From positions 1-64,000 of the forward strand of contig RXJR01000015.1 in NCBI GenBank assembly GCA_003963305.1: a stretch of DNA of 64,000 bases, in the 5' to 3' direction. The notes beneath the pieces are model-generated. The model ran no database searches and was not told the DNA's origin. It worked only from the letters and a program-made list of their open reading frames with translations. Origin of the DNA: Candidatus Melainabacteria bacterium. Lineage in GTDB: Bacteria; Cyanobacteriota; Vampirovibrionia; Obscuribacterales; Obscuribacteraceae. The position numbers were made by a program, and so were the translations under genes. Each line of letters opens with the position of its first letter. Positions within the stretch are counted from its first letter, which is position 1. Below, piece after piece: positions 1 to 22,179 of this stretch.

Positions 1-236
1 GCACTGTACCGGCGTTTCCTTGATTGGCGCCACCTTGCACTGTACCGGCGTTTCCTTGATTGGTTCCTTGGTTGGCACCACTTTGAAGTGTACCGGCGTT
101 TCCTTGGTTGGCACCGCTTTGCAGTGTAGCGGCGCTTCCCTGGTTGGCACCACTTTGCAGTGTACCGGCGCTTCCTTGGTTGGCACTACTTTGCATTGTA
201 CCGGCGCTTCCTTGATTGGCACCGCCTTGCACTGCG
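1..236 (-). repeat. 36-bp coding tandem repeat (12-aa GANQGSAGTLQS-type units)
   Basis: About six contiguous copies lie at the 3' end of the visible part of the giant gene. Most have period 36 bp, and one copy carries a 9-bp insertion near base 62. Each unit encodes a 12-residue Gly/Ala/Asn/Gln/Ser/Thr sequence. Copies differ by a few bases, so this is an aged repeat kept in frame. It continues to base 1 and probably beyond. Confidence 0.85.
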
Positions 237-3200
237 CCTTGAGTGCCCTGATTTGCGCCAGCAGTTAATCCGCTGTTAGCCCCGACATTAGAACCGGCAT
301 TTGCACCTGATCCAGTAGCGGATGTACCAGCATTCGCCCCAGTAGCTCCGGTCTGTGAAGCGGTGGCGTTACCCATTGCGCCTCCGGAGACTACTACATT
401 GTTACCAGCACTGTTCCCAGCCAGGTTCCCACCGGTAGTGGTGTTTCCAGCATTAGCGGTGCTTCCAGCCGCACTGGTGTTCCCAGCATTAGCAGTGCTT
501 CCAGCTGAAGCGGTGTTCCCAGCATTAGCAGTGTTTCCAGCTGAAGCGGTGTTCCCAGCATTAGCAGTGTTTCCACCTGAAGCGGCATTCGTGCCAGCGT
601 TCGTACCAGTGGTGTTAACAGCCGACGTGCCTGTACCTGAAATGTTGGAACTTACATTCGCTGCACTATTTCCACCAAGAACATTGGAAGCAGTTCCGCT
701 GGCCTGAGAACTCAAGGTACCACCGCTATTCGCAACGTTGCCTGTCGAATTGGCCGTGCCAGTTCCAACAGCCGCGCTCTGGTTAGAAGAGGCATTAGCA
801 CCAGTTGTGACACCACTATTGGCAGTTCCAGCCAAGTTCGAACCGGCCGCAGTGCCTAAAGTGCCGGTTGAATTTCCTGAATTCTGGCTTGACACATTGC
901 CGGCGGTGGTCTGGTTGCCTCCGACAGAACCGCTCACATTACCGGTTGTGCCTCCAGTACCAGGGTCTTTGCCGGTAATATTGACTGCAGGCAATGCATT
1001 GACGTTACCGCTTGCCGTCGACAGGCTCAACGAGCTATTAGCTGAATTTCCGCTATTAGAATTGATTACAGAAGCTGCGGTGGTCGCGGCATTGTTAGCG
1101 GTAGAGTTACCCGCAACATTAGTAGCGCCAGTGGCTGTTCCCGCGTTGCTTGTATTTGTACCACCAGTACCAGTAGCATTGCCGGACGCCGTGTTGAGAG
1201 TGCCACCGGTGCCGACATTCGAACCTGTATTGACGGTTCCCGCATTAGCTGTCGAACCGACGTTGGTGGTTCCAGCATTGGTCGTTGCACTGTTTGCATT
1301 TGCGCCAATATTAGTACCTGCGGAATTGCCTAAAGTACCGGTATTAGTAGTAGCATTATTGGCACTACCTGTAGTGGCTGATGCTGAAGGCAACGATGAT
1401 ACTGTGCCTGTAGTAGCTGTTGAGTTGAGCGTCTGACCAGACGTATTGACGCTCGTAGAATTCGAAGCGAGATTGGTTCCAGCATTTGTGGTTACAGTTG
1501 TAGAATTGCCAGTGTTGACGATTCCAGTGTTGACGTTAGCAGTGCTTACGTTGCCTGCTGTATTTGCAGATGTGTTTGCAGTATTTGCACCGGTATTCGC
1601 GGTGTTCGCACCAGTGACTACAGTGCCAGTGCCAGTGTTAGCGGCAGCGGTAGTGCCTGCAACTACCGTTCCAGTATTAGTGGCAACATTAGTGCCGGTG
1701 CCGGTGACAGTTCCATTCGTATTCGTAATCGGAACAGCAGTTGAACTGCCGGTATTTCCATGTCCATTATTTGTAGCATTGACGACCACACTACCGTTGG
1801 CGCTACCGATCGCGACTCCAGTGTTCGTGGAAAGATTGAGCGTACCACCTGAGCCCAGGTTCACAGGTCCCGGCGTCGCTTGAACCGGTCCTACAGCAAC
1901 ACTGCTTCCGGTGCTGTTGCCACTGCCATTAGTGACAGTAACCGGCACAGAGGGTGCCTTCACTTCAACTGGCTGACCGTAGAAGTTCGTACCGTTATCT
2001 TTGGTGGTACCAGGGTAACCGAGTATCGGTCCAGGCAAAACTACTGGAGTGCCGACCGGCGGTTGTGTTGTCGTCCTCTCCATCGGAGTAATAGTGACCA
2101 TGCCAGTCTTGCTGTCGATCGTCACCGTACCCGTCGTTTCCTTGATCACGTTTCCTTTTGGATCAAAGACGGTCAAAACGTTGCCGTTAGCTTGACGCAA
2201 CAGATAACCTTCGGAGTTCTTAATCTCGGTTCCGTTCGGTCCAACCGTTACTTCCGTGACCTTGCCGTTCACAGGAGCGAGATAGTAAGTGGTTGTCTGA
2301 TGGTCGGGGCTAATAGCCACTCTCGAACCATCAGCTTTGACGATCATCTGTGAGCCATCCGGCGAAATCGTCTTAAATGCCTGTGTTGCAGAATCAGTCC
2401 ACGTCTGTTTACCGCTGGCATCGACAGTGAGCGTACCTTTAAAGGCTGGTGCCCCAGGGCTGGTCCACACGCCATCTTTGAGAGTGTAGACCGTATTGCC
2501 GCTCGCATCACTGACCCGCACTGGCTGTCCATTCGGGCCAGGCGCATACTCGATCAAAGTCTTATTACCAACAGAATCAGTTATGGATGTCACCCGTCCA
2601 TAGCTATCTTTCTCAACAGTCGGTGTAACCGTCGGCGGCGGAGTTACATCTCTCTGCTGAGTGGGCTGCGTAATGACATCGGGTTTAGTTTGACTAACAA
2701 CCGCATCTGGTGCCTTTGGAACTTCTGGCGCCTTCACAACATCAGGTGCTTTGACAGGCTCTGCAGTTTTTACAACCTCTGGTGCTTTCACAACCTCTAC
2801 GGGTTTCGGAGGCTCAGGTGTTGCTTGAACACGCTCCGGCGTGCTTACTGGTTGATTAACTGGCTGCTGCTCTTGCCTGACGGGAGGCACATCAAGTCGT
2901 ACAGAGGAAGTATCTCTGTTTGCATTGTAGATAGAGTTCGAATTATTGGACGAATTGAAGTTCTCCGACCTGATCACAGGGTTATCAATCGGAGTGTAGC
3001 GAGATCCGGTGTTATTGTCTGTTGATGCAACTTGCTTAAACAACTCCGGCGCGTTGCTTGACGAGCTTATCCTTTCGACAACTGGAGGAGCACCCGGTCC
3101 ACCACCGCCGTAGCTGATGTTAGAAGGCTCGACTCTAGGTGCTGGAGGATCGACACGCATCGTCGTAGCCACCAGCCCGACAGTATTGGAGTCAGCAATC

Positions 3201-6200
3201 TTCGTTGCCGGTGGAGTGAATGTAGACTGCGGTGGCGGCGCTTGATAAACAGGCGGACCGTTGTTGACGACAGGTTGAGGAACATCAGCCTTCACAGGTG
3301 CTGTCACGACAGGTTGACCAGCAGGCGCTTGCACGACCGGCACCACTTCTGGTGCTTTAACTACAGGCGCCGACTCGGCAATCTTGCCTAAAGGTGAGCT
3401 GGGAACTTCCGGCACGTTAGGCTTCGGCCCAAATACAGGAGCTGTTGGAGTCGGCGGTACAACCGGCGGAATCGGTGCAGGCGGCGTCACGACGACCGGC
3501 TTACCACTGCCATCGGTATAGGTTCCATCAGCTGCCTTATTGGCGACTTGTCCTACACCATCAGCTCGAAGCACCTGAACACTGCCGGTATCGCTATTGG
3601 TGATAGTCGTGTTGCCAGTCTTTGAATCAACCGTAATGCGACCATTACCTGTTTGCAATACGTTCCCTTGAGCATCCGTAAGAGTAAATTTGCCTGAGCC
3701 ATTTTCCTGTGTGAGAACTGAACCATCAGCTCCATTCTTGACTCGAATGTTGCCGTTTGCGTCCACCGTCACTTCGGTCTGCTTACCGTTAACAGGCGCA
3801 TGCACGTATGTAGTGCTATCGCCGTAGGCATTAGTCTCAACGCGAGAACCGTTCGGATTAGCCTTAATCGTACTGCCATCTGAGTTGATAGTAGTTACGA
3901 CTTTGCTGTTCGCATCGGTCCAGACCTGATTGCCGTGACTATCGATTGTGACGGTGCCCTTGAAAGGTGCGTCACCGCGCAGGTCACTGGTCCACGTCTT
4001 TCCGTCTGCAGAAAGCGTCCAGGTTCTAGTTCCATCACTGATCTGCGATGGTTGACCGTTTGTATACTTAACTGTCGTGTATCGTTCTTGGGCATCTTCG
4101 ATGCCCAATACTTTGCCGGTAGCATCGCGTTCAACGGTCGAGGAAGGCAAGCCGTAAAACGAGTTGACTTCAAGCTGCGATCCATTGGCACGAATGGTTA
4201 ACTGCGTGTTGCCGTCGGTACTGACCCATTGTTGGCTTCCATCGGCGCCGACAGTGACATTGAATGTCTTTGGCGGTGTTGATTTGTCGGTGAACGTACC
4301 ATCAGCGTTGCGCTCGAAAATGGTGCCACCACTATTGATGGTTTTCAGACCCTGCGCATCATAATCAAAATTGTTGACTTTACCGACACTGTCGATTACT
4401 TGCTTGACATGACCATCTTTGGTCGTCGTAATCACTGAACCATCTGCTTGATGCGAGTGCACCATTCCTGCAGCATCAGTCAACGATGGCAGCCCGTTGT
4501 CGCTAATCTTCAGATTAGTGTAAGTAGTGCCATCTTTGCCCTGAAAGTTAACGCCATCAGTCGAGGTCAGTACGTTGGTACCATCGGTTATTGATTTCAA
4601 TTTTCCAGTTGCAGGATCATAGTCATATTTGACAGTATGACCTGCTGCATCTGTTGCTGATTTCAGGTATTTATCACCAGTGTCTGGGTTGACGCCCTGC
4701 ACACGGCTAGAGCCGTCAGGCATGCGCGTGGTGATATCTCCCGTCTTGATATCGACCGTACTCTTTTCGCCAAAATTGTTAGTAAATGAGTAAGTCCCGT
4801 CAGTCTTAACAGTGATGCTGCCCGACCATTTATCACCGTTATCATTGACCCAATTTTTGCCGGTAGAATCGGTAGCTTTCCAGTGACCGTCTGCGTTTTG
4901 CACATCAGTCAAATTGCCTTTTGCATCATAACCAAAGCTGTATCGATTACCTTTGGCATCGAAGATTTCGGTCACTTGACCAAACTTATTTGTTTCGATG
5001 CTGGACGTATCTTTCTTGAAGACATAGCTGCTTCCATCAGCGTACAAACGTGTGCTGGCGCCGGTAGAGTCATGATAATTGAGCGTTCCATTCTTATCGA
5101 CGGCTACTTCGTTTAAGGTTGTCGTGCCGTTGCTGAAGGTCTTGCCACCGTCTGTGCTGCTGAAAGAACCAGCCGGTGAAGTGAATGAAACCAACTTATT
5201 GTTGGCATCGTAGTTGTAGGAATATGTCTTACCGTTGCCGTCGATTACATTGGTTACGCTACCAGCTCGGTTAGTGGTGATTACACTACCGTCGAGATTC
5301 TGAACAGTGCTGTTTGACGCAGAATCTTTGTACTTGAGCTGACCGCTGGCATCGAGCTGCACGCCGGAAATAACCTTACCCGAGCCATCTGTTGATACGA
5401 AGCTGTTGCCGCCATCAACGGAGTGGTAAGTGCCGGTTGGAGTTTTGATATCAGAAAGCTTGTCACCATTGTAGGTGTATGTCGAAGACTGCCCGCGTGC
5501 ATCAACGACAGTCGACAGACGGCCAGCCTTGTCATACTGAAGCTGCGAACCATCCGGGTTCTCTGCGACTTTTGTTCCGTCAAGATTGGCAATTTGTTTA
5601 ACACCCTTGCCGTCTTGATATACAGTTGTGCCAGTCAACTGGTCGATTGCCATCGAGCCAGTCCAGGTGTCAGTGCCGTTCGTCCAGTTTTTGCCGTCTG
5701 CCGATGTCCACGTGCCCGACTCGTTTTTCGTGCTCTTTATGGTCCCGTCGGCGTTGTAAGTGAACTCTGATACATGACCGCCGGCATCTGATTCTTTGAT
5801 GATGCGATTTTCTTTATCGCGTTGCAGACTGGAGCCGTCAGGACGCACCTCAAGCGTGGATCCATCAGTTTGTGTAAGGTGTTTGATGCCGGTGCCTGCA
5901 TCGGTCTGAACAATATTACCCTTTTCGTCTACACCGATAGTGCCTTTGTATGTTTGCGTTGCATCTGATTTAAGTGTCCAGTTCTGACCATCTGTCGAAG
6001 TCCAGTCACCTTTGCTGTTCGTAAACGTAGTCGTATTTCCGTCATAGCCGAAGGTGTACTTTGATTTACCATCAGCGCTGGTAACCAGAGTCGGGCGTCC
6101 CTGGCTGTCCCGGTTGACGGTGGAACCATCCGCTTGAGTGGAAACACTCGTGCCATCGCCCTTCTGAATGATGACCGTGCCGTCTGCAGTTCGCGTTTCC

Positions 6201-7444
6201 TTTTCAGGATATTTATCACCAGCTTTTGGCGCTGAAGTGAAGGTGTACGTACCATCACGGGTGACATCGAAAGTGCCTTTGACCTTCGTCTTGTCGGTGT
6301 CATTCACCCAGGTGTTGCCGCCATCAGGAGAGTGCCACCATCCATACTCATTCTTGACGCCTGTCTTTCGACCATTGGCATCGTACTGAAATTCGTAAGT
6401 TTTATTGTCTGGTGTGGTTATCTTCGTAACTTGACCATCCGGATTCGACTGGATTGTCGACTTGTCCGGATTAGTTACCGTTTTATTGCCGTCAAGCGAA
6501 TATGAGGTGCTGACGCCATCTTTGACAATTGTAGCCTTACCATTAGCATCGAAATCCTTGCCATCGAATTTGGTGCCATCTTTGAACTGAACCTGGTGAG
6601 AGCCGTCGGGGTTCCAGGTGGTTGAAATTCCGGTACTGCGATCTTGATACTGGAAAGACCCGGTGCTGTCGTTGACTGTGATTGAACCCTTGAAAGTCTG
6701 ACCTTTCTCGTTCTGCCAGGTATTACCATCCGCGCTCAACTTCCAGTTGCCGGTGGCATTATCGACTTCGACAAGATTACCGTTTTGATAGACAAACTTA
6801 GATTCACGACCGGCCGAATCCTTTTCGGCTACGACACGCGGCGGCTGGCGGTTCGTATCTTTGGTCACATAACTGCCATCAGCATTCAAAGTCTGAACCA
6901 GATGCTGACCAGTCGCATCAACACCCTGGTCGATCTGTCTTGGCGGTCCTGAAATTATGGCGGTATCGGTCGCGGGTGCGTTCGCTACCTCAGGAGCTGG
7001 TCCAGTCGGGTATTGAATCCATCCAGCAGGAATGAAGTTAGCGTCGCCGGGTTTGAGCGTAGTCTGTTGAGGTCCTGCCAGAGCTTGAGCCTCAGGATTG
7101 GCCTGGACAACCTTTCCATCACTCACTTGAGAAACAACAAAAGGTCCTGACTGTTGCTTAACTTCGGGGGGTTGCTTCGGCGCAAATTCCCCGCCGGGAG
7201 CCGAAACCAGACCGGCAGTGTTCACCTTGGCAGTTATATTCGTGTAGTCGTCAATGCCGAAACCGTCATCAATGCTCTTGCCTGCAGGACGAACGGCAGT
7301 GAGAGTCGTTCTTCTGTCACCATCACCAACGATGTTCGTCAGGTTGAGCGTCGTTTCGGCTGGCTTTTTTTCGCCTACCGTGGTTTTATCAGTCGCTTTT
7401 GGCGGCTTCTTCGAGTCATCAGTTGGAGGAGGTGTTTCAACCAT
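1..7444 (-). CDS. Giant RHS/YD-like repeat protein with N/G/A/T-rich tail (3' truncated by window edge)
   Basis: The frame opens at ATG 7444-7442 and stays open to base 1, giving at least 2,481 residues; the stop lies outside the window. About residues 1-215 are disordered and Lys/Pro/Thr-rich. Residues ~215-1315 contain about ten degenerate units of roughly 90-110 aa, each starting with an aromatic-x-YD/YN motif (such as FQYDANGRKT) and continuing with WxSxDGxxW, GSITV and DGS elements. This resembles RHS/YD and cell-wall repeat proteins. A Pro/Val linker follows (~1315-1600), then one more YD-like block (~1608-1800), then a low-complexity tail of Asn, Gly, Ala, Thr and Ser with 12-residue tandem units. 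I see no signal peptide and no RHS core/toxin tip within the window. RHS-type units usually form secreted or surface beta-structures; a surface or biofilm role is inference. The gene lies 317 bp downstream of a LysM giant on the same strand. Confidence 0.85.
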   Translation of the reverse strand, partial: MVETPPPTDDSKKPPKATDKTTVGEKKPAETTLNLTNIVGDGDRRTTLTAVRPAGKSIDDGFGIDDYTNITAKVNTAGLVSAPGGEFAPKQPPEVKQQSGPFVVSQVSDGKVVQANPEAQALAGPQQTTLKPGDANFIPAGWIQYPTGPAPEVANAPATDTAIISGPPRQIDQGVDATGQHLVQTLNADGSYVTKDTNRQPPRVVAEKDSAGRESKFVYQNGNLVEVDNATGNWKLSADGNTWQNEKGQTFKGSITVNDSTGSFQYQDRSTGISTTWNPDGSHQVQFKDGTKFDGKDFDANGKATIVKDGVSTSYSLDGNKTVTNPDKSTIQSNPDGQVTKITTPDNKTYEFQYDANGRKTGVKNEYGWWHSPDGGNTWVNDTDKTKVKGTFDVTRDGTYTFTSAPKAGDKYPEKETRTADGTVIIQKGDGTSVSTQADGSTVNRDSQGRPTLVTSADGKSKYTFGYDGNTTTFTNSKGDWTSTDGQNWTLKSDATQTYKGTIGVDEKGNIVQTDAGTGIKHLTQTDGSTLEVRPDGSSLQRDKENRIIKESDAGGHVSEFTYNADGTIKSTKNESGTWTSADGKNWTNGTDTWTGSMAIDQLTGTTVYQDGKGVKQIANLDGTKVAENPDGSQLQYDKAGRLSTVVDARGQSSTYTYNGDKLSDIKTPTGTYHSVDGGNSFVSTDGSGKVISGVQLDASGQLKYKDSASNSTVQNLDGSVITTNRAGSVTNVIDGNGKTYSYNYDANNKLVSFTSPAGSFSSTDGGKTFSNGTTTLNEVAVDKNGTLNYHDSTGASTRLYADGSSYVFKKDTSSIETNKFGQVTEIFDAKGNRYSFGYDAKGNLTDVQNADGHWKATDSTGKNWVNDNGDKWSGSITVKTDGTYSFTNNFGEKSTVDIKTGDITTRMPDGSSRVQGVNPDTGDKYLKSATDAAGHTVKYDYDPATGKLKSITDGTNVLTSTDGVNFQGKDGTTYTNLKISDNGLPSLTDAAGMVHSHQADGSVITTTKDGHVKQVIDSVGKVNNFDYDAQGLKTINSGGTIFERNADGTFTDKSTPPKTFNVTVGADGSQQWVSTDGNTQLTIRANGSQLEVNSFYGLPSSTVERDATGKVLGIEDAQERYTTVKYTNGQPSQISDGTRTWTLSADGKTWTSDLRGDAPFKGTVTIDSHGNQVWTDANSKVVTTINSDGSTIKANPNGSRVETNAYGDSTTYVHAPVNGKQTEVTVDANGNIRVKNGADGSVLTQENGSGKFTLTDAQGNVLQTGNGRITVDSKTGNTTITNSDTGSVQVLRADGVGQVANKAADGTYTDGSGKPVVVTPPAPIPPVVPPTPTAPVFGPKPNVPEVPSSPLGKIAESAPVVKAPEVVPVVQAPAGQPVVTAPVKADVPQPVVNNGPPVYQAPPPQSTFTPPATKIADSNTVGLVATTMRVDPPAPRVEPSNISYGGGGPGAPPVVERISSSSNAPELFKQVASTDNNTGSRYTPIDNPVIRSENFNSSNNSNSIYNANRDTSSVRLDVPPVRQEQQPVNQPVSTPERVQATPEPPKPVEVVKAPEVVKTAEPVKAPDVVKAPEVPKAPDAVVSQTKPDVITQPTQQRDVTPPPTVTPTVEKDSYGRVTSITDSVGNKTLIEYAPGPNGQPVRVSDASGNTVYTLKDGVWTSPGAPAFKGTLTVDASGKQTWTDSATQAFKTISPDGSQMIVKADGSRVAISPDHQTTTYYLAPVNGKVTEVTVGPNGTEIKNSEGYLLRQANGNVLTVFDPKGNVIKETTGTVTIDSKTGMVTITPMERTTTQPPVGTPVVLPGPILGYPGTTKDNGTNFYGQPVEVKAPSVPVTVTNGSGNSTGSSVAVGPVQATPGPVNLGSGGTLNLSTNTGVAIGSANGSVVVNATNNGHGNTGSSTAVPITNTNGTVTGTGTNVATNTGTVVAGTTAAANTGTGTVVTGANTANTGANTANTSANTAGNVSTANVNTGIVNTGNSTTVTTNAGTNLASNSTSVNTSGQTLNSTATTGTVSSLPSASATTGSANNATTNTGTLGNSAGTNIGANANSATTNAGTTNVGSTANAGTVNTGSNVGTGGTLNTASGNATGTGGTNTSNAGTATGATNVAGNSTANNAATTAASVINSNSGNSANSSLSLSTASGNVNALPAVNITGKDPGTGGTTGNVSGSVGGNQTTAGNVSSQNSGNSTGTLGTAAGSNLAGTANSGVTTGANASSNQSAAVGTGTANSTGNVANSGGTLSSQASGTASNVLGGNSAANVSSNISGTGTSAVNTTGTNAGTNAASGGNTANAGNTASAGNTANAGNTASAGSTANAGNTSAAGSTANAGNTTTGGNLAGNSAGNNVVVSGGAMGNATASQTGATGANAGTSATGSGANAGSNVGANSGLTAGANQGTQGAVQGGANQGSAGTMQSSANQGSAGTLQSGANQGSAATLQSGANQGNAGTLQSGANQGTNQGNAGTVQGGANQGNAGTV
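440..584 (-). repeat. 36-bp coding tandem repeat (NAGNTASAGNTA-type units)
   Basis: A second 36-bp array in the same gene. The GGTGTTCCC landmark recurs at 476, 512 and 548, exactly 36 bp apart. The encoded unit is 12 residues of Asn, Ala, Gly, Thr and Ser. Unit length matches the array at the window start but the sequence differs. Confidence 0.85.
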
Positions 7445-7761
7445 TAGAAACCAGAACCGTCTTCACGGTCACTTTGCTCAGTTTTTCCTGCGCTTCCAGA
7501 CACTTTCAGAGAATTAGTCGTCTAAGGCTAAAGCCTCAGTGGCAGCGCAATCGCACTCGGTAGTAAGAGATGAAACCGTCTGCCTTAGTCGACTAACTCA
7601 GCCAGTCTCCGGGGATCCCAGGGCTACCGGCAAATGCCGTCGCCCGCACCGATGTCAATATACTCCTATCCGTGTGCCAATAATGTCATCTATCCAACAT
7701 TTCTTGTCCATTAGACAAGAAAACTATCGGATCTAGATTAATTCTGTCCGGTCAGACCAGA
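7445..7761. other. Intergenic region upstream of the RHS-like gene
   Basis: 317 bp between two minus-strand giant genes. No convincing ORF. It must hold the 3' end of the LysM giant's transcript and the promoter region of the RHS-like gene. The only clear structure is the inverted repeat at 7700-7722. A smaller AGGCT-AA-AGCCT dyad lies near 7526. No canonical -35/-10 pair stood out. Confidence 0.6.
7700..7722. promoter_or_regulatory. Perfect 9-bp inverted repeat (operator or terminator stem)
   Basis: TTTCTTGTC, a 5-nt loop, then GACAAGAAA. It lies 40 bp downstream of the LysM giant's stop and about 255 bp upstream of the RHS-like ATG. The stem is AT-rich and no T-run follows it on the minus strand, so a protein-binding operator is at least as likely as an intrinsic terminator. 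Confidence 0.5.
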
Positions 7762-10700
7762 TCAGCGGTTCAGGCTAATTAATTGAGCAAAATAACGGTC
7801 TCGATAATTCTTCCAGTTTGTCTTCAAATCGTTGTTCGAAAGTTCCAAAATCGCTTCGGTTGGCAAGTCGATGCGAACGCTCTTTCGATCGCCGCGAGGA
7901 GAGTATTCATGACGCATTGAACTCTGTGCAAAAATTTCGTAAGCCACCACGGATTTCCAGGCGTTATCCCGACTGACTTCTACGACAACAACAGTCGACG
8001 GGTTATCGCCATGAACCATGCATCGGGTCAGGCGAGTCTGTTCATCGAGTTGGACGACCGCCACTTGAGCTTGCGCATCATAGAGCGGCGGCGGGATGAC
8101 TGGCGCCGGTTCGAGTTCGACGGTTTCTGGAGGGGCCGGGCGTTTGGTCAGAGGAACTCCAGGTTTTTGCACGAATCCAGCGGCCTGGATGACGACCATG
8201 CCGGCATCAGACACAGATGGAGGTCTCGAGTCGAGATTGAAGCTATGAGCACAAGCGCCGCAGATTGCCGCGCCTACCGCGCTCAGTCGGCCACACTGAG
8301 GGCAGGCCTTTGTCGACCTGCCGCCCGCTGGTGCCTTGACACCGTTATGTTCACGGAAGTACTCAACCTCATGAGCGGTCGGGATCAAAATCGTGGATCC
8401 GCGCGACAATCGTGCTAAAGGTGTGCCTTTTTGATCCGTCTCAACGGAAATGTCATTTATCTCCGCTAACAACGGCCAGAGGGAAATATCTTGCAATGAT
8501 GGATGTTTCATTGCCACCGTCTTTAGTGTGTCGCCAAGCCTGACCACATAGCGAATGCGACCATCGGCCGGCTTTTGCTTGGCAATGGGTCCAAGCAATT
8601 TTTCAATGTTGGCCCTGCGTGCTTGCGCAGCCGCCAGCTGCTCTGGTGTCATCGATGGTGCACTTAAATCCCCGCCGGCAGCACCAGATTCAGTAGCATC
8701 ACCAGATGTAGTACCATCCCAATTTGCACCGAACCGTGCAGCCAATTCCTCCTCTGCCGACAGTTTTTCGTCACCCGCAGACTGTGCAGTAGAGCCAGAA
8801 TGTAAACGTTTTCGGAATTCTCGAATATCAACTTCGGACGGCAACCAGATCACCTGACGAGCGCGCAGATCTGGAACCTCACGACCGTTTTCCAACTTCA
8901 TGGCAATTTCTTTCTTATTGATTTCATGAATCAATGGAGCCAACTTCGCATCGCGATGCTGTTTTGATGCGATTGACTCGAGAGTATCTCGCTCTCTAAC
9001 GACATAACGACGGCGACGAGCGTCTTCGTCCTGTTTCTTGTCCTTGAGTTTCTCTTGCTCTTTTTGCTGCTTCTCTTTGTCTTCCCGAACCTTGCGGTCT
9101 GCCATGAGTGCAAGCAAAGCGGCTTCTCGGCGTTGCTGCTCTTCTTCCAGACGTTCTTTCTCGTCTTTCTGCTTCTCGGCCAGTTCCTTATCGTCTTTGC
9201 CCTTTTTGCCGTCGAGATTGTTGCCCAACCCGTCTTGTTTTCCAAAAGGAGAATGAGGATCGAGCTTATCGCCGCGCTCATCTTTACCGTCTTTGCTTTC
9301 AGGTCGAATAACCAGATCTGGCCGCCCTGGCATCTCCCCTCTTGCGCCAAGTTCTCCCTTTACTCCAAGTTCTGCTTTTATGCCGAGGTCTTTGCCAGTC
9401 ATATCCTTGTCGGATTTTCCGGGTAATTCTTTGCCTGTCGGATCTTTTCCAGCAAGCTCTTTTGCGGCAATCTCCTTTCCAGCAAGCTCTTTGCCCGCTG
9501 CTTCTCTTCCCTGAGCATCTTTAACAGGCAACTCTTTTCCTGCAGCTAACTCTTTGGCGGTTGGCTCATGCTTCCCATCTGGCTTTTGCTCAGCTTTATT
9601 GGCAAGCTCAGCTTTGACGGTCGTCTCGATTTTGATGCCCGGTTCATTTTTACCAAGCAGGTCTGTCTGTCGTTGAGTTGCATGTGTATCTTGGTTCGCA
9701 AGACGAGCATCTTTCATATCGAGGAGCGCGCGTATAGCTTGCTCTTGTTGCGGAGTAAGCCTTGCCGTAAATGTAAGCGGATCAAGATTGGTCGGTGCCA
9801 GAGCGCTCTTACCTTCTAAACCACGCTCACCACCTCTGGTACCATCAAGGGAGCGACCGATGATGTCACCGAGAGTAAGCACGTTCTTGCCTTCGAATCC
9901 GAATTGCTTATTAACGTCTCCTACAAGTCTGTTTATCTCTTGCATCAACCGAGCATCACGGACCTGCAGGGACTGCAAATCGATCAAATTCTGGTTGCCT
10001 CGAACCAGATCGGTCAACCTGTCGATAGCCATCTTTTGACCTTGAGTAATATCGACTGGGGCTCCCGCCACTCGATCACCTGGCTGAGTAAGCAGCGAAG
10101 CCAGCCTACCGACTGCAGCATCGGTGATCTGTCCCTTTCCATCAGGATTCAAAAATGCTTGCAATTTATCAACTTTTTGCGGATCGAATCCTTTCAATAT
10201 ATCCTGCAGATTCTGATTCTGACTGCGCGGATCGAAGTCACCCATCTTATTGGACTGAATTTGTTTCAAAGCATCTGCAAGGAACTGCCGGGTCTGCGGA
10301 TCATGCATATCCAGACCAGGAATACCATTTCTCTGTTGCGGCAACGCTGGCTGCGGCTGGTCGCCACCGGCACCACGAGCGGCTATCTGCACACCAGGGT
10401 TATCTTTGCCATCACCGCCATGCCCACGAGTCAAATCTGGTGGCAACTGAACCGGTTGAAATGGCTTACCGTCACCCCCAATTCTATCGACCGGCTGCAT
10501 GCCAGGGTTTTGTAACTTCTGCGCCAGAACGGCAGGATCGATCGGTCCTTGCCCCGGTTGACCTGGAAGTCCGCGAAGCGCGGCATTGTCGCCACCAGGC
10601 GTGAAGTTGCCTTTGTTTCCATCTTTGAGGATGACACCCTCAACTGCTGTCACAACCTTCGCTGGATCTACCTGCCGAACCGGTTGACCATCAATACCTC

Positions 10701-11922
10701 CTGGATTCGGACGCACGACTGGCTGGTTGTCGCCATTACCTTTGGTCCACTGACCACCCGGATTCAAGTTATCCGGTTTAAGTGCACCGCCATCCAGTCT
10801 CGCCGGTATCGGCTGCTGACCTGGTTGCACCACCGGCTGCTCACTTTTCGCTGGTGTCGAAGGGATAGCAGCAGGCTGCTTGTCGGTGCCAGCCGGCGCA
10901 GCTGGCTGCTTATCGGTGCCTGCCGGTGCAACTGGCTGCTTGTCAGTTCCAGCCGGTGCCGGCTGGGAAGTACCTGGATTGTCCATCCCTGACCGAACCT
11001 GATGGGCAGTTTGTCTCAAGTCGTTTATTACATCGCCGGCATTAGCACGATCGGTTTTGATCCCCACTTCAGCAACTTGTCTAATAAAGTCTCGCTGTTG
11101 CTCTCTTGGAAGCTGGCTCAGACTGCTGGTTAACAAATCACGCTGTTGTTGATCATTGGCACCCTTGAACGAATTATAGAATGCCGCAGGATCGAGTTTT
11201 GGCGCTGCTGAAGGAGCAGCTGCCGGAGCAGCCACAACAGCGTGCTCGACACCACCAGTGGTGTTAACCACTGGTACCGTCTTATCAGTACCAGCCGGTG
11301 GTACTACTCGCTCCGGAGCCACGGCGGGCGCCACTACTGGCGCCACTGGAGCTACGGCTGCAGGTTTTTCCGCTACCGGCTTGTCCACCGCCGGTTTATC
11401 GCCCTGGCTTGCAGAAGCGTCGTTATCGTTATTTCTTCTATTTCCCCAACGTCCAAAGTTGTTCGAAACGACATCACGCTGCGTAGCTTCAATAGGCGGT
11501 TGCCCTTCTCTTTGAGGTTGCAGGGTATATCGTCCATTTTCTGACTGAACTTTGTAAGTATCCCCTTCAGGAGTTTTGAAGAATGTGCCGTCCCGATTAT
11601 GGTACTGACCGCCCTGAATGGTGTTGCCATTGGCGTCCGTATACTTAACGACTTGCCCTCGCGAAATTCCCTCACCCTGACCGACATCACGATTGAACTG
11701 CTCAGCTGTGTATCGCGTATTCCCTCTGTTTCCACTCTCAAGCCCGATCGCGGCCCGGAAGGCATCTTCTGAAGATTCATGCGTCCCGCCACCTGACGTG
11801 TCGTTATGGGCGCCATCCCCTACGCGAGTACCCGAGGCGGCCGGAGCGGGATGTTTCTCTGGGGGAGGACTCTTCTTATCGTCTGCCTTTATGAGGCTGT
11901 CCGACGACGAAATTTCAGTCAT
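7762..11922 (-). CDS. Giant disordered protein with two LysM domains, zinc ribbon and shared C-terminal domain
   Basis: A 1,386-aa protein. ATG 11922 is chosen over the upstream frame extension because GGAG (11932-11929) sits 6 nt ahead. About residues 1-900 are Pro/Gly/Gln/Lys-rich and disordered, with short repeats such as PAGTDKQP and GKELAGKE. A charged Lys/Glu coiled coil follows (~905-970). LysM 1 (RDTLESIA core) lies at ~970-1024 and LysM 2 (GDTLKTVA core) at ~1123-1180. A CPQC...CGAC zinc ribbon is at ~1205-1226. The last ~90 residues, with RC, W-x2-VVAYE and YRDRY landmarks, match the C-terminus of the divergent neighbour at 12151. LysM modules generally bind GlcNAc-containing glycans such as peptidoglycan. 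No signal peptide is visible, so the location is uncertain. It is probably a paralog of the neighbouring giant; the function of the shared C-terminus is unknown. Confidence 0.85.
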   Translation of the reverse strand: MTEISSSDSLIKADDKKSPPPEKHPAPAASGTRVGDGAHNDTSGGGTHESSEDAFRAAIGLESGNRGNTRYTAEQFNRDVGQGEGISRGQVVKYTDANGNTIQGGQYHNRDGTFFKTPEGDTYKVQSENGRYTLQPQREGQPPIEATQRDVVSNNFGRWGNRRNNDNDASASQGDKPAVDKPVAEKPAAVAPVAPVVAPAVAPERVVPPAGTDKTVPVVNTTGGVEHAVVAAPAAAPSAAPKLDPAAFYNSFKGANDQQQRDLLTSSLSQLPREQQRDFIRQVAEVGIKTDRANAGDVINDLRQTAHQVRSGMDNPGTSQPAPAGTDKQPVAPAGTDKQPAAPAGTDKQPAAIPSTPAKSEQPVVQPGQQPIPARLDGGALKPDNLNPGGQWTKGNGDNQPVVRPNPGGIDGQPVRQVDPAKVVTAVEGVILKDGNKGNFTPGGDNAALRGLPGQPGQGPIDPAVLAQKLQNPGMQPVDRIGGDGKPFQPVQLPPDLTRGHGGDGKDNPGVQIAARGAGGDQPQPALPQQRNGIPGLDMHDPQTRQFLADALKQIQSNKMGDFDPRSQNQNLQDILKGFDPQKVDKLQAFLNPDGKGQITDAAVGRLASLLTQPGDRVAGAPVDITQGQKMAIDRLTDLVRGNQNLIDLQSLQVRDARLMQEINRLVGDVNKQFGFEGKNVLTLGDIIGRSLDGTRGGERGLEGKSALAPTNLDPLTFTARLTPQQEQAIRALLDMKDARLANQDTHATQRQTDLLGKNEPGIKIETTVKAELANKAEQKPDGKHEPTAKELAAGKELPVKDAQGREAAGKELAGKEIAAKELAGKDPTGKELPGKSDKDMTGKDLGIKAELGVKGELGARGEMPGRPDLVIRPESKDGKDERGDKLDPHSPFGKQDGLGNNLDGKKGKDDKELAEKQKDEKERLEEEQQRREAALLALMADRKVREDKEKQQKEQEKLKDKKQDEDARRRRYVVRERDTLESIASKQHRDAKLAPLIHEINKKEIAMKLENGREVPDLRARQVIWLPSEVDIREFRKRLHSGSTAQSAGDEKLSAEEELAARFGANWDGTTSGDATESGAAGGDLSAPSMTPEQLAAAQARRANIEKLLGPIAKQKPADGRIRYVVRLGDTLKTVAMKHPSLQDISLWPLLAEINDISVETDQKGTPLARLSRGSTILIPTAHEVEYFREHNGVKAPAGGRSTKACPQCGRLSAVGAAICGACAHSFNLDSRPPSVSDAGMVVIQAAGFVQKPGVPLTKRPAPPETVELEPAPVIPPPLYDAQAQVAVVQLDEQTRLTRCMVHGDNPSTVVVVEVSRDNAWKSVVAYEIFAQSSMRHEYSPRGDRKSVRIDLPTEAILELSNNDLKTNWKNYRDRYFAQLISLNR

Positions 11923-12075
11923 GGTGATCTCCGGAAATAAGACAGGAACTAGTCTCTCACTCAACATACCCAAGAGGGTTGCCAGAGAATTCGTGTGAAA
12001 TTGTGATTAGTAAAAGTCGGAGAAGCCGACCAATCAGTCGAGCCATCCATATATAAGATAGCGTTAAGAATAATA

Positions 12076-12091
12076 GCCCCAGCAGTGGGGC
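12076..12091 (+). promoter_or_regulatory. GC-rich hairpin in leader of LysM giant
   Basis: GCCCC-AGCAGT-GGGGC forms a short stem 60 bp upstream of the GTG start at 12151, in the 228-bp divergent region between the two LysM giants. A second small dyad, GTCGG-AGAAG-CCGAC, lies near 12017-12031. Both are candidate leader structures or operators; no T-run follows. Confidence 0.35.
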
Positions 12092-12129
12092 GTTGTCAAC
12101 AAGCAACAGCGCCTAAATTGCCCCACATC

Positions 12130-12147
12130 GAGGGACATTTAATGTAA
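12130..12147 (+). promoter_or_regulatory. Strong SD followed by an in-frame ATG-TAA start-stop
   Basis: GAGGG at 12130-12134 is ideally spaced (7 nt) from ATG 12142-12144, but the next codon is TAA. This ATG is in the same frame as the long downstream ORF, whose first usable start is GTG 12151 (ATG 12163 is the next). The best ribosome site therefore serves a two-codon start-stop element. Confidence 0.6.
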
Positions 12148-12150
12148 TTC

Positions 12151-15100
12151 GTGTCCAGTCAAATGTCGGGGCGTGTACATAAAAATAGGCGGGATTTTAA
12201 ACTCTTTCAATTCCGCATTTCAACGAAGCAACTTGCTTCTGCAAGTGGCATACCACACGCGGATGGCGGCATGGGTTCAATTTTTCAAAGCGCGGGTCTG
12301 GAACAAACCGACTCTCAAAAGAATAAAACGCAAGTTAGTAGCGAGCGCGAAAGTACCATTGCGCATCTGCTCTTCTCTTTTGGATATGCGAGCGCACAGG
12401 TAGATCAGCCAACCGCCTCAGCGTATTCACAAAGCACTGACAGCAAGCCATATCTACTGAAACCCGTCTCGGATACTACGGCTTCAGTAGTCCGAGCGGC
12501 AGAATCACTGACAATCGGAACGCAAGCACCGCTGATTCGGAGCGCCCTGACAACTAACTTACTTAGTCCTGAACCGGGCTTGCTCAAAGCTCAAGTTGCG
12601 CCCGCAGATCCCACCTGTCGAAACTTAATGCAGTGCGACACAGCGGCGCCGCGTCTGAGCAACAATGGACAGCCGGAAGTTCCCATCCTCAGAGTGCTAA
12701 AGGAAAGCGCCCAGGTACCTGTAGCCCAGACCGCAGATGGGTCTGCGGGCACCTCAGCCCCAGCCCCCAGGTATGATACTGCTGCAACTGCGCCAAAAAC
12801 GCCCCCCGTTTATGAGCCGGCAGCGATAATTCCAGCAAGAGTCGAGCCCGCAAATCAACCAACAGTTGACAGTAAACCTGCACCGCAAAATTTGACGCGT
12901 GATTCGCAGAACCAGATTTCAACTCCGGCGATCAAGCCGGATGTGTCACCTCAGACGGTGCCCATAGCGGCAATATCCTCGGGCACACAAATAAATACAA
13001 CTATCACTTCACCAATACGAAACGACGGTTATATCGCTTCTCGCACAGACATAGCGACGGGAATTCAACCACCTGCAATTCAACCGACAATATTGCAACC
13101 TCAGGCAAATCGCCCGGAGACACTTCCACTTAGCTCGAACAAAGTCGATGTGGTACCCGCTCCGCTCACGCAAAGAACTGAGTCTGGCGTAATACCAAGG
13201 TCCGAATCGGCGCCGACAAATCCACTAACTGCACCACAGACGGTTGGACGATCTGAAATTGGCAATCCGACAGTTCGCGACAGCATTCCTGCCAGAGAAG
13301 TACCTGCAACCATACAAAATCCGCCGAGGTCAGCGGTCATGGCCCAGGCAAGTACTGAAGCTGGGGCTATCCCAGTGCGACAGGTAGCAGCGACATGGAA
13401 TGATCAACTAAATAGGTTTAACTACAATGATGTAGTGACACCACCCAGGTCAAATCAAACGACAGACAGACAACCAGCTACGGCACCAAATCCGGTGCCT
13501 GGCAGCCCCTTGCCCACCACCATAAGTTCTGATTCTTTATCTGCAAGAACGACTGCCGCATTACCTGGGGGAACTGATAAACAACCCTCGCTGAACCTGG
13601 ATACAACGAATTCCAGGCAGAATTCCACCACCGACTCAACATCCGTGACCAGAAATACGCAACCAATGCCCGGCGATACAGGTACTGTGGTCCGACCAGG
13701 AACAAACAGTCCAGACAATACACAATTTGCAAAACCGGGACAACCAACCACAGTAGACACCCAAACAGTAGCAAAACCAGGTCCGACAAATCCTCTGGAA
13801 CCATCAAAACCCGGCTTACCAGGTCCAATAGACTCTGCCACAAACCGAACGGCACCAACTGATAGGACTGGAATAGATTCCACTCGAAATGCCATAGACA
13901 GCAGAACCCCAATACCGGGAGATACAGCTCAACGAAATACTCCTGTGACCAACACAGACGGAAAGTTGATAGACGGGGCACTGAGACCAGGCGTAACTGA
14001 TGGACGAGGGCAAGATGTAACGAGAACGCCTGCGGCTGATCCGTTACGACCGTCATCGCTAGAGAATCCACGAGGAACGGCCGAAGCAAAACCAACCGAT
14101 CTCCCTAGAGCCGGGCAGGACGCACGCACGGCAGACAACGCCAGAATCGGAGCCGATCCTCGACTACAAGACAGCGCGAAAATCGGCATTGATGGTCGCA
14201 CTCCGGATGCTTCCAGAACTGGAGTCGACGGTCGTACTCCCGATGCTTCCAGACCGGGAATCGACGCTCGTACTCCCGATGCTTCCAGAACTGGAATCGA
14301 CGCTCGTACTCCCGATGCTTCCAGAACTGGAATCGACGGTCGCACTCCCGATGCTTCCAGACCGGGAATCGACGCTCGTACTCCCGATGCCTCCAGAACT
14401 GGAATCGACGCTCGTACTCCCGATGCTTCCAGAACTGGAATCGACGCTCGTACTCCCGATGCTTCCAGACCTGGAATCGACGCTCGCACTTCCGATGCCT
14501 CCAGAACTGGAATCGACGCTCGTACTCCCGATGCTTCCAGACCTGGAATCGACGCTCGCACTCCCGATGCCTCCAGAACTGGAATCGACGCTCGTACTCC
14601 CGATGCTTCCAGAACTGGTCAAGAATTCCGACCAGCGGACAGCCAACGCACCAATACCACTGATGGTGTCAATCGAGCCGAAGCAAATAGAACCACTAAT
14701 GATGGAATCACCAGACAGTCTGATCAAAGAGGAGATCAAGCGAGAGGAGACATTCGACCAGACAGTCAAGTCGGGAAATTCGAAGCAGGACGAACTGAAA
14801 CAGGAATTCGCGCCGGCTCTGAACTCTCGCAACAAAAAGCAGGTGAACTCCGCTCAGACGTTTCACCAGCAAAACCAGGCGAAGTTCGTTCAGAAAACAC
14901 AGCAACACGCGGCATTGAACAGCGAAACGAAATTTCAGCAAATCGAAATAACGAAACGCGCGGTGAAACTTCAGGGACGCGAACAAACGAAGCAAGCAAA
15001 ATAGTCGAGACTACCGGCATCAGAAATAACGAAGCGCGGCTAGATGCGACTGCCAACAAACAACCAGATAACACTCAAATCAGGACAGACATAGTTAGCG

Positions 15101-17337
15101 GAAGAACTGATTCAACAAAAGTCGACAGTACGAATTCGCGCTCAGACAATGCCGCCATTAAAGTCGACAGCGGGTCAGGACGCACCGACAACCCAGGAAT
15201 CAAGAATGATGGAATGGCAGCCCGCAACGACATCCCATCCACCAGGACTGATACCGGATCGGCGCGCACAGATAATCCCGGAATCAAAACAGACAACAGC
15301 GTAGTGCGCACCGACAATCCTGCAATCAAAAATGAAATCAGCGCTGCACGCACCGACAATCCCGGAATCAAAAACGACAGTAGTTCAGTGCGCACCGACA
15401 ACGTCGGAATCAAAAACGACAGCAGCGCAGCGCGCACCGACAACGCCGGAATCAAAAACGACAGCAGCACAGTGCGCCCCGACATTACCGGAATCAAAAC
15501 CGACAGCAACGCAGTGCGCACCGACAATCCTGGAATCAAGACTGACAGCAGCACAGTGCGCACCGACATTACCGGAATCAAAAACGACAGCAGCTCAGTG
15601 CGCACCGACATCACCGGAATCAAAAACGACAGCAGCTCAGTGCGCACCGACAATGCGGCGAGCAAATTCGACGGTATTGTTGTCAAAAATGAAAGTCCAA
15701 TAGTTAAGCCAGACGGCGCAAACAACATCAAGATAGACAGTGCACTGTCACAGTCACCCATCCAGAATGACTCATCCGCGCCAAAACAGAATGGTTCTAA
15801 AATTGCTGACGGAATAGATAGTAGCAAAATCGCAGACAGAGTGGGCATTCCCCCCGAAGGAGCAAAGCCAACGCCATTCGGTTTTCCAGCGGACGTTGTG
15901 GCAACGCACAAAGAAGCTGCTGCCATCAGGCAGGTTCTCAATGAACTTAGACAGAATCAAAATCTATCGCCCTCAGAGGTCCTGGAGCTGCCCAGCTTCA
16001 AAGAAGCAATCAGACTTCTGGACGCGCTCAAAACAAGAGATGCCGATTCGCATCAAGACGTCAAACAACATTTCACAACCTCGTTCGTAGAAGCAATGCG
16101 GCTTTCAGACTTCCTGAAAGTTCTGGAAAGAGCCGATGAAGTTCAGCAGAAGAGAATCCATAAGCAGCAGTGGGCCGCACGCTCTATTGCGCAAACACAG
16201 CATCGAGTCAGATACCTGGTCCAGCGCGAAGATACACTTGAGAGCATTGCGCAAAAAATTCTCGGCGACGTCAGATTCGTCCAGCTGCTCGTCACAATCA
16301 ATAGAGCAGAAATTATCTTCACCGTCGTAAATGGCAAATCAGTATCAACAGTCTATGAAGGTCAATATCTCTGGATTCCAACACCCAATGAAGTCGCCAT
16401 CCACCGCAAACACTATTTCAATGCAAACGGCGCTGCCTTGCGCGGTGAACCGATTGCACCGGAAGATCCTACGCCGATTCGAGTCGAAGAGTACGAAGCT
16501 CCTACAACGGTTCGCGATTTCGCGACTCGATTGAAACCGCTAACAGCACCACAGGTAATGACTCCAGAAGGACCGGTGAGCAGTCCGATGGCATTAGTTC
16601 TTTACCGGTTACGATTTGCAGGCAACCGAAACTCAGTCAATCTCGACGAAGTCCCTGAAGATGAACAGGAATCAGCACAACCCAGCAACAGACGTCACCA
16701 CAAGGTCAGGCTCGGTGAGACCCTGCAGTCGATAGCCGTGAACGACGAGCTTTTGAAAGACGTAAACATGTGGGTTTTGATATGCCAGATAAACAATCTG
16801 AGCACCGCAGTCGATGTCGTCGGCAGACCTCGCGTTCAAATAAATCGCGGTGACATACTGCTGTTGCCAAACCAGGAAGAAATAGAAGAATTCAAACTAC
16901 TGAAAAAACTGACAGAAATTGCGCAGTTGTCCGGCAAAGAGCTGGACGTCGACCTGACACGTAAACCGGCTCCAGCAAAAGCATCGCCTCACTGCAAAAT
17001 TGACCGACAGATGTCAATCGAGAAACTCTGGGAGCGGTGCCGCATGATTCTGACTGACAACGATGACACCAGTTACAGTATCAAGCTGCAGAGAGACACA
17101 CTCGAGGGTCGCTGGACGACAGTGGCAGCGTATGAATCGAAAAACGGAAAAACTGTTCGCTGGACATACAAAATAGACGGCGCCAGGACTTGCCTCGAGG
17201 TCGGCTTACCGGCGGCAGTGTCTCGCGAAATGGCAATAGAAGATTTTCAACGCAATTGGCGCTTTTACTATAATCGCTACACCGCGATCACAACAGATAC
17301 GCTGGAACTGCTCGATTTGAGTGAGGCGGCTTTGTAG
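12151..17337 (+). CDS. Giant disordered protein with tandem repeats, two LysM domains and shared C-terminal domain
   Basis: Up to 1,728 aa from GTG 12151; ATG 12163 is an alternative. No clear signal peptide. Residues ~40-1240 are disordered and Pro/Thr/Asn/Asp/Arg-rich. They contain twelve exact-length 12-aa units (residues 679-822) and about nine 14-aa units (~1037-1174). A helical region (~1250-1350) precedes LysM 1 (REDTLESIA core, ~1352-1410) and LysM 2 (GETLQSIA core, ~1516-1580). The final ~100 residues carry RC, W-x2-VAAYE and YYNRY landmarks shared with the divergent protein at 7762-11922. There is no zinc ribbon here, unlike in that paralog. A 486-aa gene follows in the same direction 102 bp later and may be co-transcribed. 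A glycan-binding scaffold is a reasonable inference from LysM; the rest is unknown. Confidence 0.85.
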   Translation: MSSQMSGRVHKNRRDFKLFQFRISTKQLASASGIPHADGGMGSIFQSAGLEQTDSQKNKTQVSSERESTIAHLLFSFGYASAQVDQPTASAYSQSTDSKPYLLKPVSDTTASVVRAAESLTIGTQAPLIRSALTTNLLSPEPGLLKAQVAPADPTCRNLMQCDTAAPRLSNNGQPEVPILRVLKESAQVPVAQTADGSAGTSAPAPRYDTAATAPKTPPVYEPAAIIPARVEPANQPTVDSKPAPQNLTRDSQNQISTPAIKPDVSPQTVPIAAISSGTQINTTITSPIRNDGYIASRTDIATGIQPPAIQPTILQPQANRPETLPLSSNKVDVVPAPLTQRTESGVIPRSESAPTNPLTAPQTVGRSEIGNPTVRDSIPAREVPATIQNPPRSAVMAQASTEAGAIPVRQVAATWNDQLNRFNYNDVVTPPRSNQTTDRQPATAPNPVPGSPLPTTISSDSLSARTTAALPGGTDKQPSLNLDTTNSRQNSTTDSTSVTRNTQPMPGDTGTVVRPGTNSPDNTQFAKPGQPTTVDTQTVAKPGPTNPLEPSKPGLPGPIDSATNRTAPTDRTGIDSTRNAIDSRTPIPGDTAQRNTPVTNTDGKLIDGALRPGVTDGRGQDVTRTPAADPLRPSSLENPRGTAEAKPTDLPRAGQDARTADNARIGADPRLQDSAKIGIDGRTPDASRTGVDGRTPDASRPGIDARTPDASRTGIDARTPDASRTGIDGRTPDASRPGIDARTPDASRTGIDARTPDASRTGIDARTPDASRPGIDARTSDASRTGIDARTPDASRPGIDARTPDASRTGIDARTPDASRTGQEFRPADSQRTNTTDGVNRAEANRTTNDGITRQSDQRGDQARGDIRPDSQVGKFEAGRTETGIRAGSELSQQKAGELRSDVSPAKPGEVRSENTATRGIEQRNEISANRNNETRGETSGTRTNEASKIVETTGIRNNEARLDATANKQPDNTQIRTDIVSGRTDSTKVDSTNSRSDNAAIKVDSGSGRTDNPGIKNDGMAARNDIPSTRTDTGSARTDNPGIKTDNSVVRTDNPAIKNEISAARTDNPGIKNDSSSVRTDNVGIKNDSSAARTDNAGIKNDSSTVRPDITGIKTDSNAVRTDNPGIKTDSSTVRTDITGIKNDSSSVRTDITGIKNDSSSVRTDNAASKFDGIVVKNESPIVKPDGANNIKIDSALSQSPIQNDSSAPKQNGSKIADGIDSSKIADRVGIPPEGAKPTPFGFPADVVATHKEAAAIRQVLNELRQNQNLSPSEVLELPSFKEAIRLLDALKTRDADSHQDVKQHFTTSFVEAMRLSDFLKVLERADEVQQKRIHKQQWAARSIAQTQHRVRYLVQREDTLESIAQKILGDVRFVQLLVTINRAEIIFTVVNGKSVSTVYEGQYLWIPTPNEVAIHRKHYFNANGAALRGEPIAPEDPTPIRVEEYEAPTTVRDFATRLKPLTAPQVMTPEGPVSSPMALVLYRLRFAGNRNSVNLDEVPEDEQESAQPSNRRHHKVRLGETLQSIAVNDELLKDVNMWVLICQINNLSTAVDVVGRPRVQINRGDILLLPNQEEIEEFKLLKKLTEIAQLSGKELDVDLTRKPAPAKASPHCKIDRQMSIEKLWERCRMILTDNDDTSYSIKLQRDTLEGRWTTVAAYESKNGKTVRWTYKIDGARTCLEVGLPAAVSREMAIEDFQRNWRFYYNRYTAITTDTLELLDLSEAAL
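14185..14616 (+). repeat. Twelve 36-bp coding tandem repeats (12-aa units)
   Basis: Exactly 432 bp = 12 x 36 bp with no gaps, encoding GIDARTPDASRT-type units. Variation is confined mostly to A/G at position 4 and T/P at position 12. The tight length and near-identity at DNA level indicate recent expansion or gene conversion. The units are contiguous, with no spacers. Confidence 0.95.
15259..15672 (+). repeat. About ten 42-bp coding tandem repeats (14-aa units)
   Basis: Nine full 42-bp units (15259-15636) and a decaying tenth encode SVRTDNPGIKNDSS-type units. More degenerate copies precede them from about 15170. Divergence is greater than in the 36-bp array of the same gene. Confidence 0.9.
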
Positions 17338-17439
17338 AAAGAGAGCGTCCATAAGTCGTCAGACGAATTCGTGCCCGCTAATTTTCATGTGAAATCACAT
17401 GCGATACAATCTTCTGTCAGCGCAGCAAAGGGCAGGCAC

Positions 17440-18900: not shown

Positions 18901-18906
18901 TCTCAG

Positions 18907-19458: not shown

Positions 19459-19569
19459 TAGTAAATTTCCGTGGGGCGTACTGAATGTTTGTAGCACGGT
19501 TTTCAAGTATTTCAAATGACTTCCGCACGTAATTAATATGCGACTACGTATTTCCCGCAAGAAACAGAA

Positions 19570-20580: not shown

Positions 20581-20634
20581 TATTGATTAGTCTTCACTGG
20601 ACTTTTGGTGCGCATCATTTATCATAATATTTGT

Positions 20635-20943: not shown

Positions 20944-21027
20944 TACACAAATCTTATTGACCATATCTAGCGGCATCTGTGCGCATGCTTCGCACATGGT
21001 GGCAATCTAGCGACGAATTGTGGAACT

Positions 21028-22150: not shown

Positions 22151-22179
22151 TACAATAGAGTGCCATCAAGGAAAGAGAT

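What the first reader, a model, noticed from the sequence alone, without database searches (positions are those of the whole stretch)
1..7444. More than 2,480-residue RHS-like protein ending in a repeat-grown N/G/A/T tail
YD-type units (about ten), a Pro-rich hinge, another unit, then over 650 residues of very low complexity built in part from 12-aa tandem units. The order (ordered repeats first, disordered tail last) differs from classical RHS toxins, where the tip is a C-terminal enzyme. The stop is outside the window, so a terminal domain may still follow.
Basis: seen in the sequence. Interest (0 to 1): 0.6.

Follow-up and report, generated by a model that had tools for sequence, protein, structure and literature searches.

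The report
Giant YD–LysM protein cut by assembly
The apparent "protein that ends in a disordered tail" is the front half of one of this bacterial family's conserved giant proteins: a repeat-rich head, a long flexible linker and a sugar-binding (LysM) rear module; the rear was missing only because assemblies break inside the linker's repeats.

Summary
The reading frame is real: 2..7444 (-), 2,481 codons from ATG, no stop. It has ten YD units of about 96 aa, a Pro-rich hinge, one more unit, then about 650 N/G/A/T/S-rich residues. Base 1 of the window is the physical end of contig C15 and lies inside a 36-bp tandem array, so the "tail last" order is an assembly effect. In six genomes of the same GTDB family the orthologue is one unbroken ORF of 3,436–5,945 aa: YD head, middle linker (low-complexity in five of six), then coiled coil, two LysM domains, a Zn ribbon and a DUF7718-type end. 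The missing rear half in this genome is almost certainly G000:C43:2-3379. Genes beyond both contig ends are syntenic with the flanks of the unbroken ORFs. In five other split genomes the two contig ends carry the same genome-specific repeat DNA. By its rear module the protein is a paralogue of the LysM giants next to it. It is not a classical RHS toxin: no RHS core, no DPxG[LYM], conserved C-terminus. Most likely mechanism (inferred): a leaderless envelope-binding tether. Its convergent neighbours are VirD4-like and HerA-like ATPases, but VirB4 is absent, so a classical T4SS is not supported.

The parts
2..7444 (-). N-terminal part (2,481 aa) of a giant YD-linker-LysM-DUF7718 gene; the frame runs off the contig edge
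   Evidence: rear half identified off-window at G000:C43:2-3379 (L073) by homology and two-sided synteny
3545..6922 (-). YD head, residues 175-1300: ten composite units of about 96 aa ([FY]xYD motif, then a GxWxxxDGxxW-like motif)
   Evidence: PF05593 E 9.4e-39; unit list; all-beta AlphaFold2 model, pLDDT 70.5, Foldseek best hits Rhs and teneurin YD shells, E 1.8e-24
2645..3514 (-). Pro-rich hinge (about residues 1311-1600)
   Evidence: sequence and low-entropy span; alignable in two G002 copies
2075..2614 (-). single YD-type unit after the hinge (about residues 1611-1790), strongly conserved in the G002 copies
2..1957 (-). N/G/A/T/S-rich low-complexity linker (from residue 1830), internal in complete orthologues
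   Evidence: composition; complete ORFs G046, G053, G055, G048, G011
1..234 (.). 36-bp tandem array (6.2 copies) at the contig edge; the likely reason the assembly stops
   Evidence: TRF; the facing contig C43 also begins in a 36-bp array, 12.4 copies
7762..11973 (-). upstream LysM-LysM-Zn-ribbon-DUF7718 giant (1,403 aa), paralogue of the rear module; directly upstream of the YD giant in the unbroken loci
   Evidence: PF24839 E 1.2e-5, LysM
8251..8304 (-). Zn-ribbon CxxC-x10-CxxC of the upstream giant (the same pattern is in the rear module of the YD giant)
   Evidence: Cys positions 1224, 1227, 1238, 1241
7789..8037 (-). DUF7718 domain of the upstream giant
   Evidence: PF24839, residues 1313-1395
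12151..17337 (+). divergent LysM giant (1,728 aa), third paralogue sharing the LysM-DUF7718 end
   Evidence: A2 match at 16129-16908

Best explanation
The frame is the front of one giant gene of at least 3,607 aa (2,481 + 1,126 + an unsequenced gap). Shown, by homologues and synteny: N-terminal YD head, then a repeat-grown flexible linker, then a conserved C-terminal module (coiled coil, LysM, LysM, Zn ribbon, DUF7718-type end). That module is shared with the two neighbouring giants. Inferred: the protein, which has no signal peptide or transmembrane segment that I could see, works as a long tether. The rear LysM module holds it to a peptidoglycan or glycan surface, the linker gives reach and changes length by slippage of 36-bp repeats, and the YD head is the displayed or interacting part. 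How it crosses the membrane is unknown. Architecture about 0.95; tether function about 0.45; the score below is for the two together.
For: Unbroken ORFs with this order in six genomes of five genera: G046 5,945 aa, G048 5,854, G053 5,499, G055 4,123, G007 3,555, G011 3,436. Their heads match P0001 (G055 E 2.6e-37, G011 7e-25, G053 1.4e-13, G046 8.7e-11; weaker in G048 3e-9 and G007 2e-6) and their ends match G000:C43 at 33-43% identity. Rear-module cysteines of the Zn-ribbon type recur in all six; Pfam finds LysM and DUF7718 traces. Two-sided synteny: window genes 19573-30000 match the upstream flank, and C43 genes 3936-22735 (HerA-like, VirD4-like, SelA, SpoU, EF-Tu) match the downstream flank of unbroken loci. 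In 18 genomes the rear-module frame is open exactly at a contig edge, and in 11 the head-side frame is. Facing ends share genome-specific repeat DNA: G040 190 shared 14-mers, G003 121, G041 52, G012 29, G016 22, against 0-1 for all cross-genome pairs. No 19-aa window in P0001 or its C43 half exceeds mean KD 1.22. LysM1 is modelled at pLDDT 72-86 with LysM folds among the hits.
Against: In G000 itself the two contig ends share no repeat DNA, so the join is by synteny and homology and the gap length is unknown. G007 has the architecture without a low-complexity linker, so the linker is not essential in every lineage. LysM and DUF7718 scores in the rear modules are mostly just under the Pfam cut-offs. 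The Zn ribbon and missing leader could equally mean a cytosolic protein. No localisation or binding data exist.
Confidence: 0.5

Rival explanations
1. A cytosolic scaffold or condensate protein: leaderless giants that use low-complexity linkers and a Zn-ribbon/DUF7718 end for protein or nucleic-acid contacts inside the cell.
For: No signal peptide or transmembrane-like segment in any of the giants; Zn-ribbon cysteines, usually found in a reducing compartment, are present in every complete orthologue; neighbouring HerA-like and VirD4-like ATPases resemble DNA or substrate translocases.
Against: Two LysM domains point to an extracytoplasmic glycan ligand; head and linker of P0001 have no Cys, as is common in exported proteins.
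Confidence: 0.25
2. An RHS/YD polymorphic toxin in which the YD part cages a C-terminal enzyme.
For: YD repeats; Foldseek of the head model retrieves Rhs, TcC and teneurin shells; classical RHS proteins exist elsewhere in this genome.
Against: No RHS-associated core in P0001, whereas the control L014 has it (TIGR03696 1.2e-15); no DPxG[LYM] motif in any of the giants; the C-terminus is conserved at 33-43% across genera rather than polymorphic and has no known toxin domain.
Confidence: 0.05
3. A substrate of a stand-alone VirD4/HerA-type export motor encoded by the convergent neighbours, with the DUF7718 end acting as the C-terminal recognition signal.
For: HerA-like (82-85% identical to the unbroken loci) and VirD4-like membrane ATPases follow the giant in the loci seen; the last 15 residues are conserved (NWxxYxxKFLxGKKLSA type); both families occur in the two families of this order and in none of 13 other genomes of the class.
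Against: VirB4 (PF03135) is absent from G000 and was found in only one of 30 relatives; no pore component was found; co-occurrence may only reflect shared ancestry; the genes are convergent, not co-transcribed.
Confidence: 0.1
4. The C15 frame and the C43 frame are two different genes, and the tail really ends the protein a little beyond base 1.
For: No shared repeat DNA between the two ends in G000.
Against: Six unbroken orthologues in five genera and two-sided synteny; five other split genomes with shared repeats; no other rear-module frame open at a contig edge was found in G000.
Confidence: 0.03

Closest known systems
RHS/YD polymorphic toxins (Rhs, Tse5, WapA-type; TcC)
   Same: YD repeats recognised by PF05593 and TIGR01643; local fold of the head model matches YD shells
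   Different: no RHS core or DPxG[LYM] motif, no C-terminal toxin, conserved rather than polymorphic C-terminus, YD part near the N-terminus followed by a long linker
Teneurins and bacterial teneurin-like proteins (PMC13018210)
   Same: large YD-repeat protein; in that paper some bacterial members lack a predicted signal peptide and some Gram-positive members carry cell-wall-binding domains
   Different: no RHS core or variable C-terminal toxin domain here; the linker and LysM-Zn-ribbon-DUF7718 end were not seen in the passages I read
LysM cell-wall-binding proteins
   Same: two LysM domains near the C-terminus; LysM1 modelled with fair confidence
   Different: no signal peptide; combined with a Zn ribbon, DUF7718 and a giant YD head
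Very large repetitive bacterial surface proteins (e.g. the A. kunkeei giants, PMC12863079)
   Same: thousands of residues, adjacent giant genes (abstract)
   Different: no secretion signal here; different domains (from my own knowledge, not compared by tool)

Membership tests
RHS/YD repeat proteins (broad sense) | YD/RHS repeats above curated cut-off | tested here: met
   PF05593 131.5 bits against 22; TIGR01643 103 bits against 15.8
RHS polymorphic toxin | RHS-associated core domain (TIGR03696) ahead of the C-terminal toxin | tested here: not met
   absent at E<=0.01 in P0001 and in the C43 half; positive control L014 has it. The unsequenced gap could not be tested
RHS polymorphic toxin | autoproteolysis-type DPxG[LYM] motif | tested here: not met
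   none in P0001, the C43 half or six complete orthologues
RHS polymorphic toxin | polymorphic C-terminal toxin domain with immunity gene | tested here: not met
   C-terminal module conserved across genera; the flanking convergent genes are ATPases in the loci seen
RHS polymorphic toxin | closed YD cage | tested here: inconclusive
   local fold matches YD shells but TM-score 0.11 and pTM 0.38
LysM protein | LysM domain | tested here: met
   G046 rear module 25.5 bits against 20.9; G000:C43 19.3 bits, just below; upstream giant above cut-off
DUF7718 (PF24839) | Pfam match above 25 bits | tested here: inconclusive
   upstream giant 25.5 bits, over; rear modules of the YD giant 18-24 bits, under, but homologous to it
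Type IV secretion substrate or locus | VirB4 ATPase in the genome | tested here: not met
   PF03135 absent in G000; of 30 genomes only G004 has it

The most novel reading that the evidence does not exclude
The order carries its own export system: leaderless LysM/DUF7718 giants recognised through their DUF7718 C-terminal end and driven out by an adjacent VirD4-like membrane ATPase and HerA-like ATPase without the rest of a T4SS.
Probability: 0.08. Interest if true: 0.85.

Novelty: new variant of a known kind. Interest (0 to 1): 0.5.

Why it matters
A locus with one of the largest genes in these genomes, conserved in position near EF-Tu across a family of non-photosynthetic relatives of cyanobacteria, is cut in two in most of the assemblies read here and so will be mis-described as several unrelated or tail-ended proteins. 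Knowing the full design (YD head, slippage-prone linker, LysM/Zn-ribbon/DUF7718 rear) makes its localisation and export testable and gives DUF7718, which no paper in the held library mentions, a context.

Tried and rejected
(1) Finding the other half by DNA similarity to the C15 end gave nothing, because the two ends lie in different arrays. (2) Using the G002 copies to see past the tail failed: both run off their contigs too. (4) The RHS toxin reading was rejected by the missing RHS core, with a positive control. (5) A classical T4SS reading was rejected by absence of VirB4. (6) AlphaFold of the LysM–DUF7718 end with three sequences left DUF7718 below pLDDT 50, so no fold claim is made; a PDB sequence search with its profile gave no hit. 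(7) Synonymous versus non-synonymous differences between the 36-bp units (36 against 72 codon differences in pairwise comparisons) are too few and too dependent to argue selection. (8) Literature: no paper on DUF7718 and none joining Obscuribacterales with YD repeats.

Full report
What was checked. The window is contig C15 of a 7.48-Mb, 44-contig genome, from base 1. The frame 2..7444 (-) is open over 2,481 codons and starts at ATG. It has ten YD units of about 96 aa (residues about 197-1300), a Pro-rich hinge, one more unit at about 1611-1790, and from 1830 a stretch of 651 residues that is 83% N, G, A, T and S, ending in 36-bp tandem copies at the contig edge. It holds no Cys.

Organism. The closest named record is a Candidatus Melainabacteria MAG (palsa_1080; PLZS01000037 and PLZS01000004) with two copies at 61-65% overall identity. 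The same contigs lie in genome G002, which the tool places in the same genus. Both copies also run off their contigs inside the low-complexity part. That the group is Obscuribacterales is my inference from what I know of GTDB placement, not a tool result.

Where the protein really ends. A profile (A2) of the C-terminal end of the neighbouring LysM giant (window 7762-11973) and its relatives was run over 50 genomes of the family. In contiguous genomes it hits twice in a row: once in the orthologue of that giant and once at the very end of the next, enormous frame. Reading those loci shows unbroken ORFs of 5,945 (G046), 5,854 (G048), 5,499 (G053), 4,123 (G055), 3,555 (G007) and 3,436 aa (G011), each directly downstream of the LysM–DUF7718 gene. 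Their N-terminal parts match the YD head (E 2.6e-37 to 2e-6) and their C-terminal 480 residues match contig C43 of the window's own genome at 33-43% identity. The low-complexity part is in the middle in five of the six; G007 has none by the thresholds used. Pfam finds RHS_repeat in the G011 and G055 heads, but none in the first 3,664 residues of G046, whose head is recognised only by BLASTP over 178 residues.

The missing half. G000:C43:2-3379 is a 1,126-aa frame, open at the contig start, which begins in 36-bp repeats of its own, passes through a His-rich stretch and a coiled coil, and ends in LysM, LysM, Zn ribbon and a DUF7718-type end. Genes to the right of it (HerA-like ATPase, VirD4-like ATPase, an 832-aa protein, SelA, SpoU methylase, EF-Tu) match the genes downstream of the unbroken giants; genes 19573-30000 of the window match the genes upstream of them. 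The two contig ends therefore face each other across a gap inside one gene. Shared repeat DNA does not bridge the gap in G000, but it does in G003, G012, G016, G040 and G041, with cross-genome pairs as a negative control. In 18 genomes the rear-module frame starts exactly at a contig edge, which is the expected signature of a repeat that short reads cannot cross.

The cassette. Three adjacent giants, the divergent 12151-17337, 7762-11973 and the YD giant, share the LysM–DUF7718 end. Matches to that profile occur in 27 of 40 relatives: every genome searched of the two families of the order, and none of 13 other genomes of the class. The HerA-like gene has nearly the same distribution. PF24839 itself is rare in the phylum sample (3 of 386).

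Structure. The head model (three sequences, mean pLDDT 70.5, pTM 0.38) is an all-beta ladder. Foldseek finds Rhs effectors, teneurins and TcC at E down to 1.8e-24, but TM-scores near 0.1 mean that only the local hairpin ladder matches, and a closed cage is not shown. LysM1 is modelled with fair confidence, DUF7718 is not.

How it most likely works. Shown: order of domains, no signal peptide or membrane-like segment by hydropathy (no dedicated predictor was available), recurring Zn-ribbon cysteines, fast-changing linker. Inferred: LysM domains bind peptidoglycan or a similar glycan, the linker spans distance, and the YD head is the working end. Export is unresolved. The adjacent VirD4-like ATPase has membrane segments, and in bacteria-killing T4SSs such coupling proteins recognise leaderless effectors by a C-terminal XVIPCD domain (titles and abstracts, and my own knowledge). 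But VirB4 is missing, so I give an export role only about 0.1.

Novelty. The parts are known; this combination and its conserved locus are, as far as the held literature shows, undescribed. I rate it a new variant of a known kind.

Noticed in passing
L017:6550-13755 (G000:C21), L045:5964-14492, L039:5415-12701: YD-headed giants of 2,400-2,850 aa with annexin repeats (PF00191, E 6e-11 to 7e-7) in bacteria.
   Followed up: partly
L019:9131-11341 (G000:C33): YD head followed by an EF-hand and a calpain-type Peptidase_C2 domain (E 9.8e-12), 737 aa, no obvious signal peptide.
   Followed up: no
L073:3936-11337 (G000:C43): Conserved pair of VirD4/TraD-like (with membrane segments) and HerA/CedD-like ATPases, the latter 82-85% identical across genera, near EF-Tu; several HerA-like copies per genome, two of them adjacent, in family f2 (G024-G026).
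   Followed up: partly
L037 (G002:C76) and L038 (G002:C195): Relative G002 carries two copies of the whole cassette (divergent LysM giant, LysM-DUF7718 giant, YD giant).
   Followed up: partly
L042 (G022:C100) and L043 (G022:C35): YD-related open frames of 7,646 and 6,083 aa in a family relative.
   Followed up: no
G004:C1:74920 and 161121: Two VirB4-type genes, the only ones among 30 relatives searched.
   Followed up: no
L073:3416-3991: Conserved small frame (about 190 aa, no Pfam match) between the giant and the HerA-like gene, on the ATPase strand.
   Followed up: no
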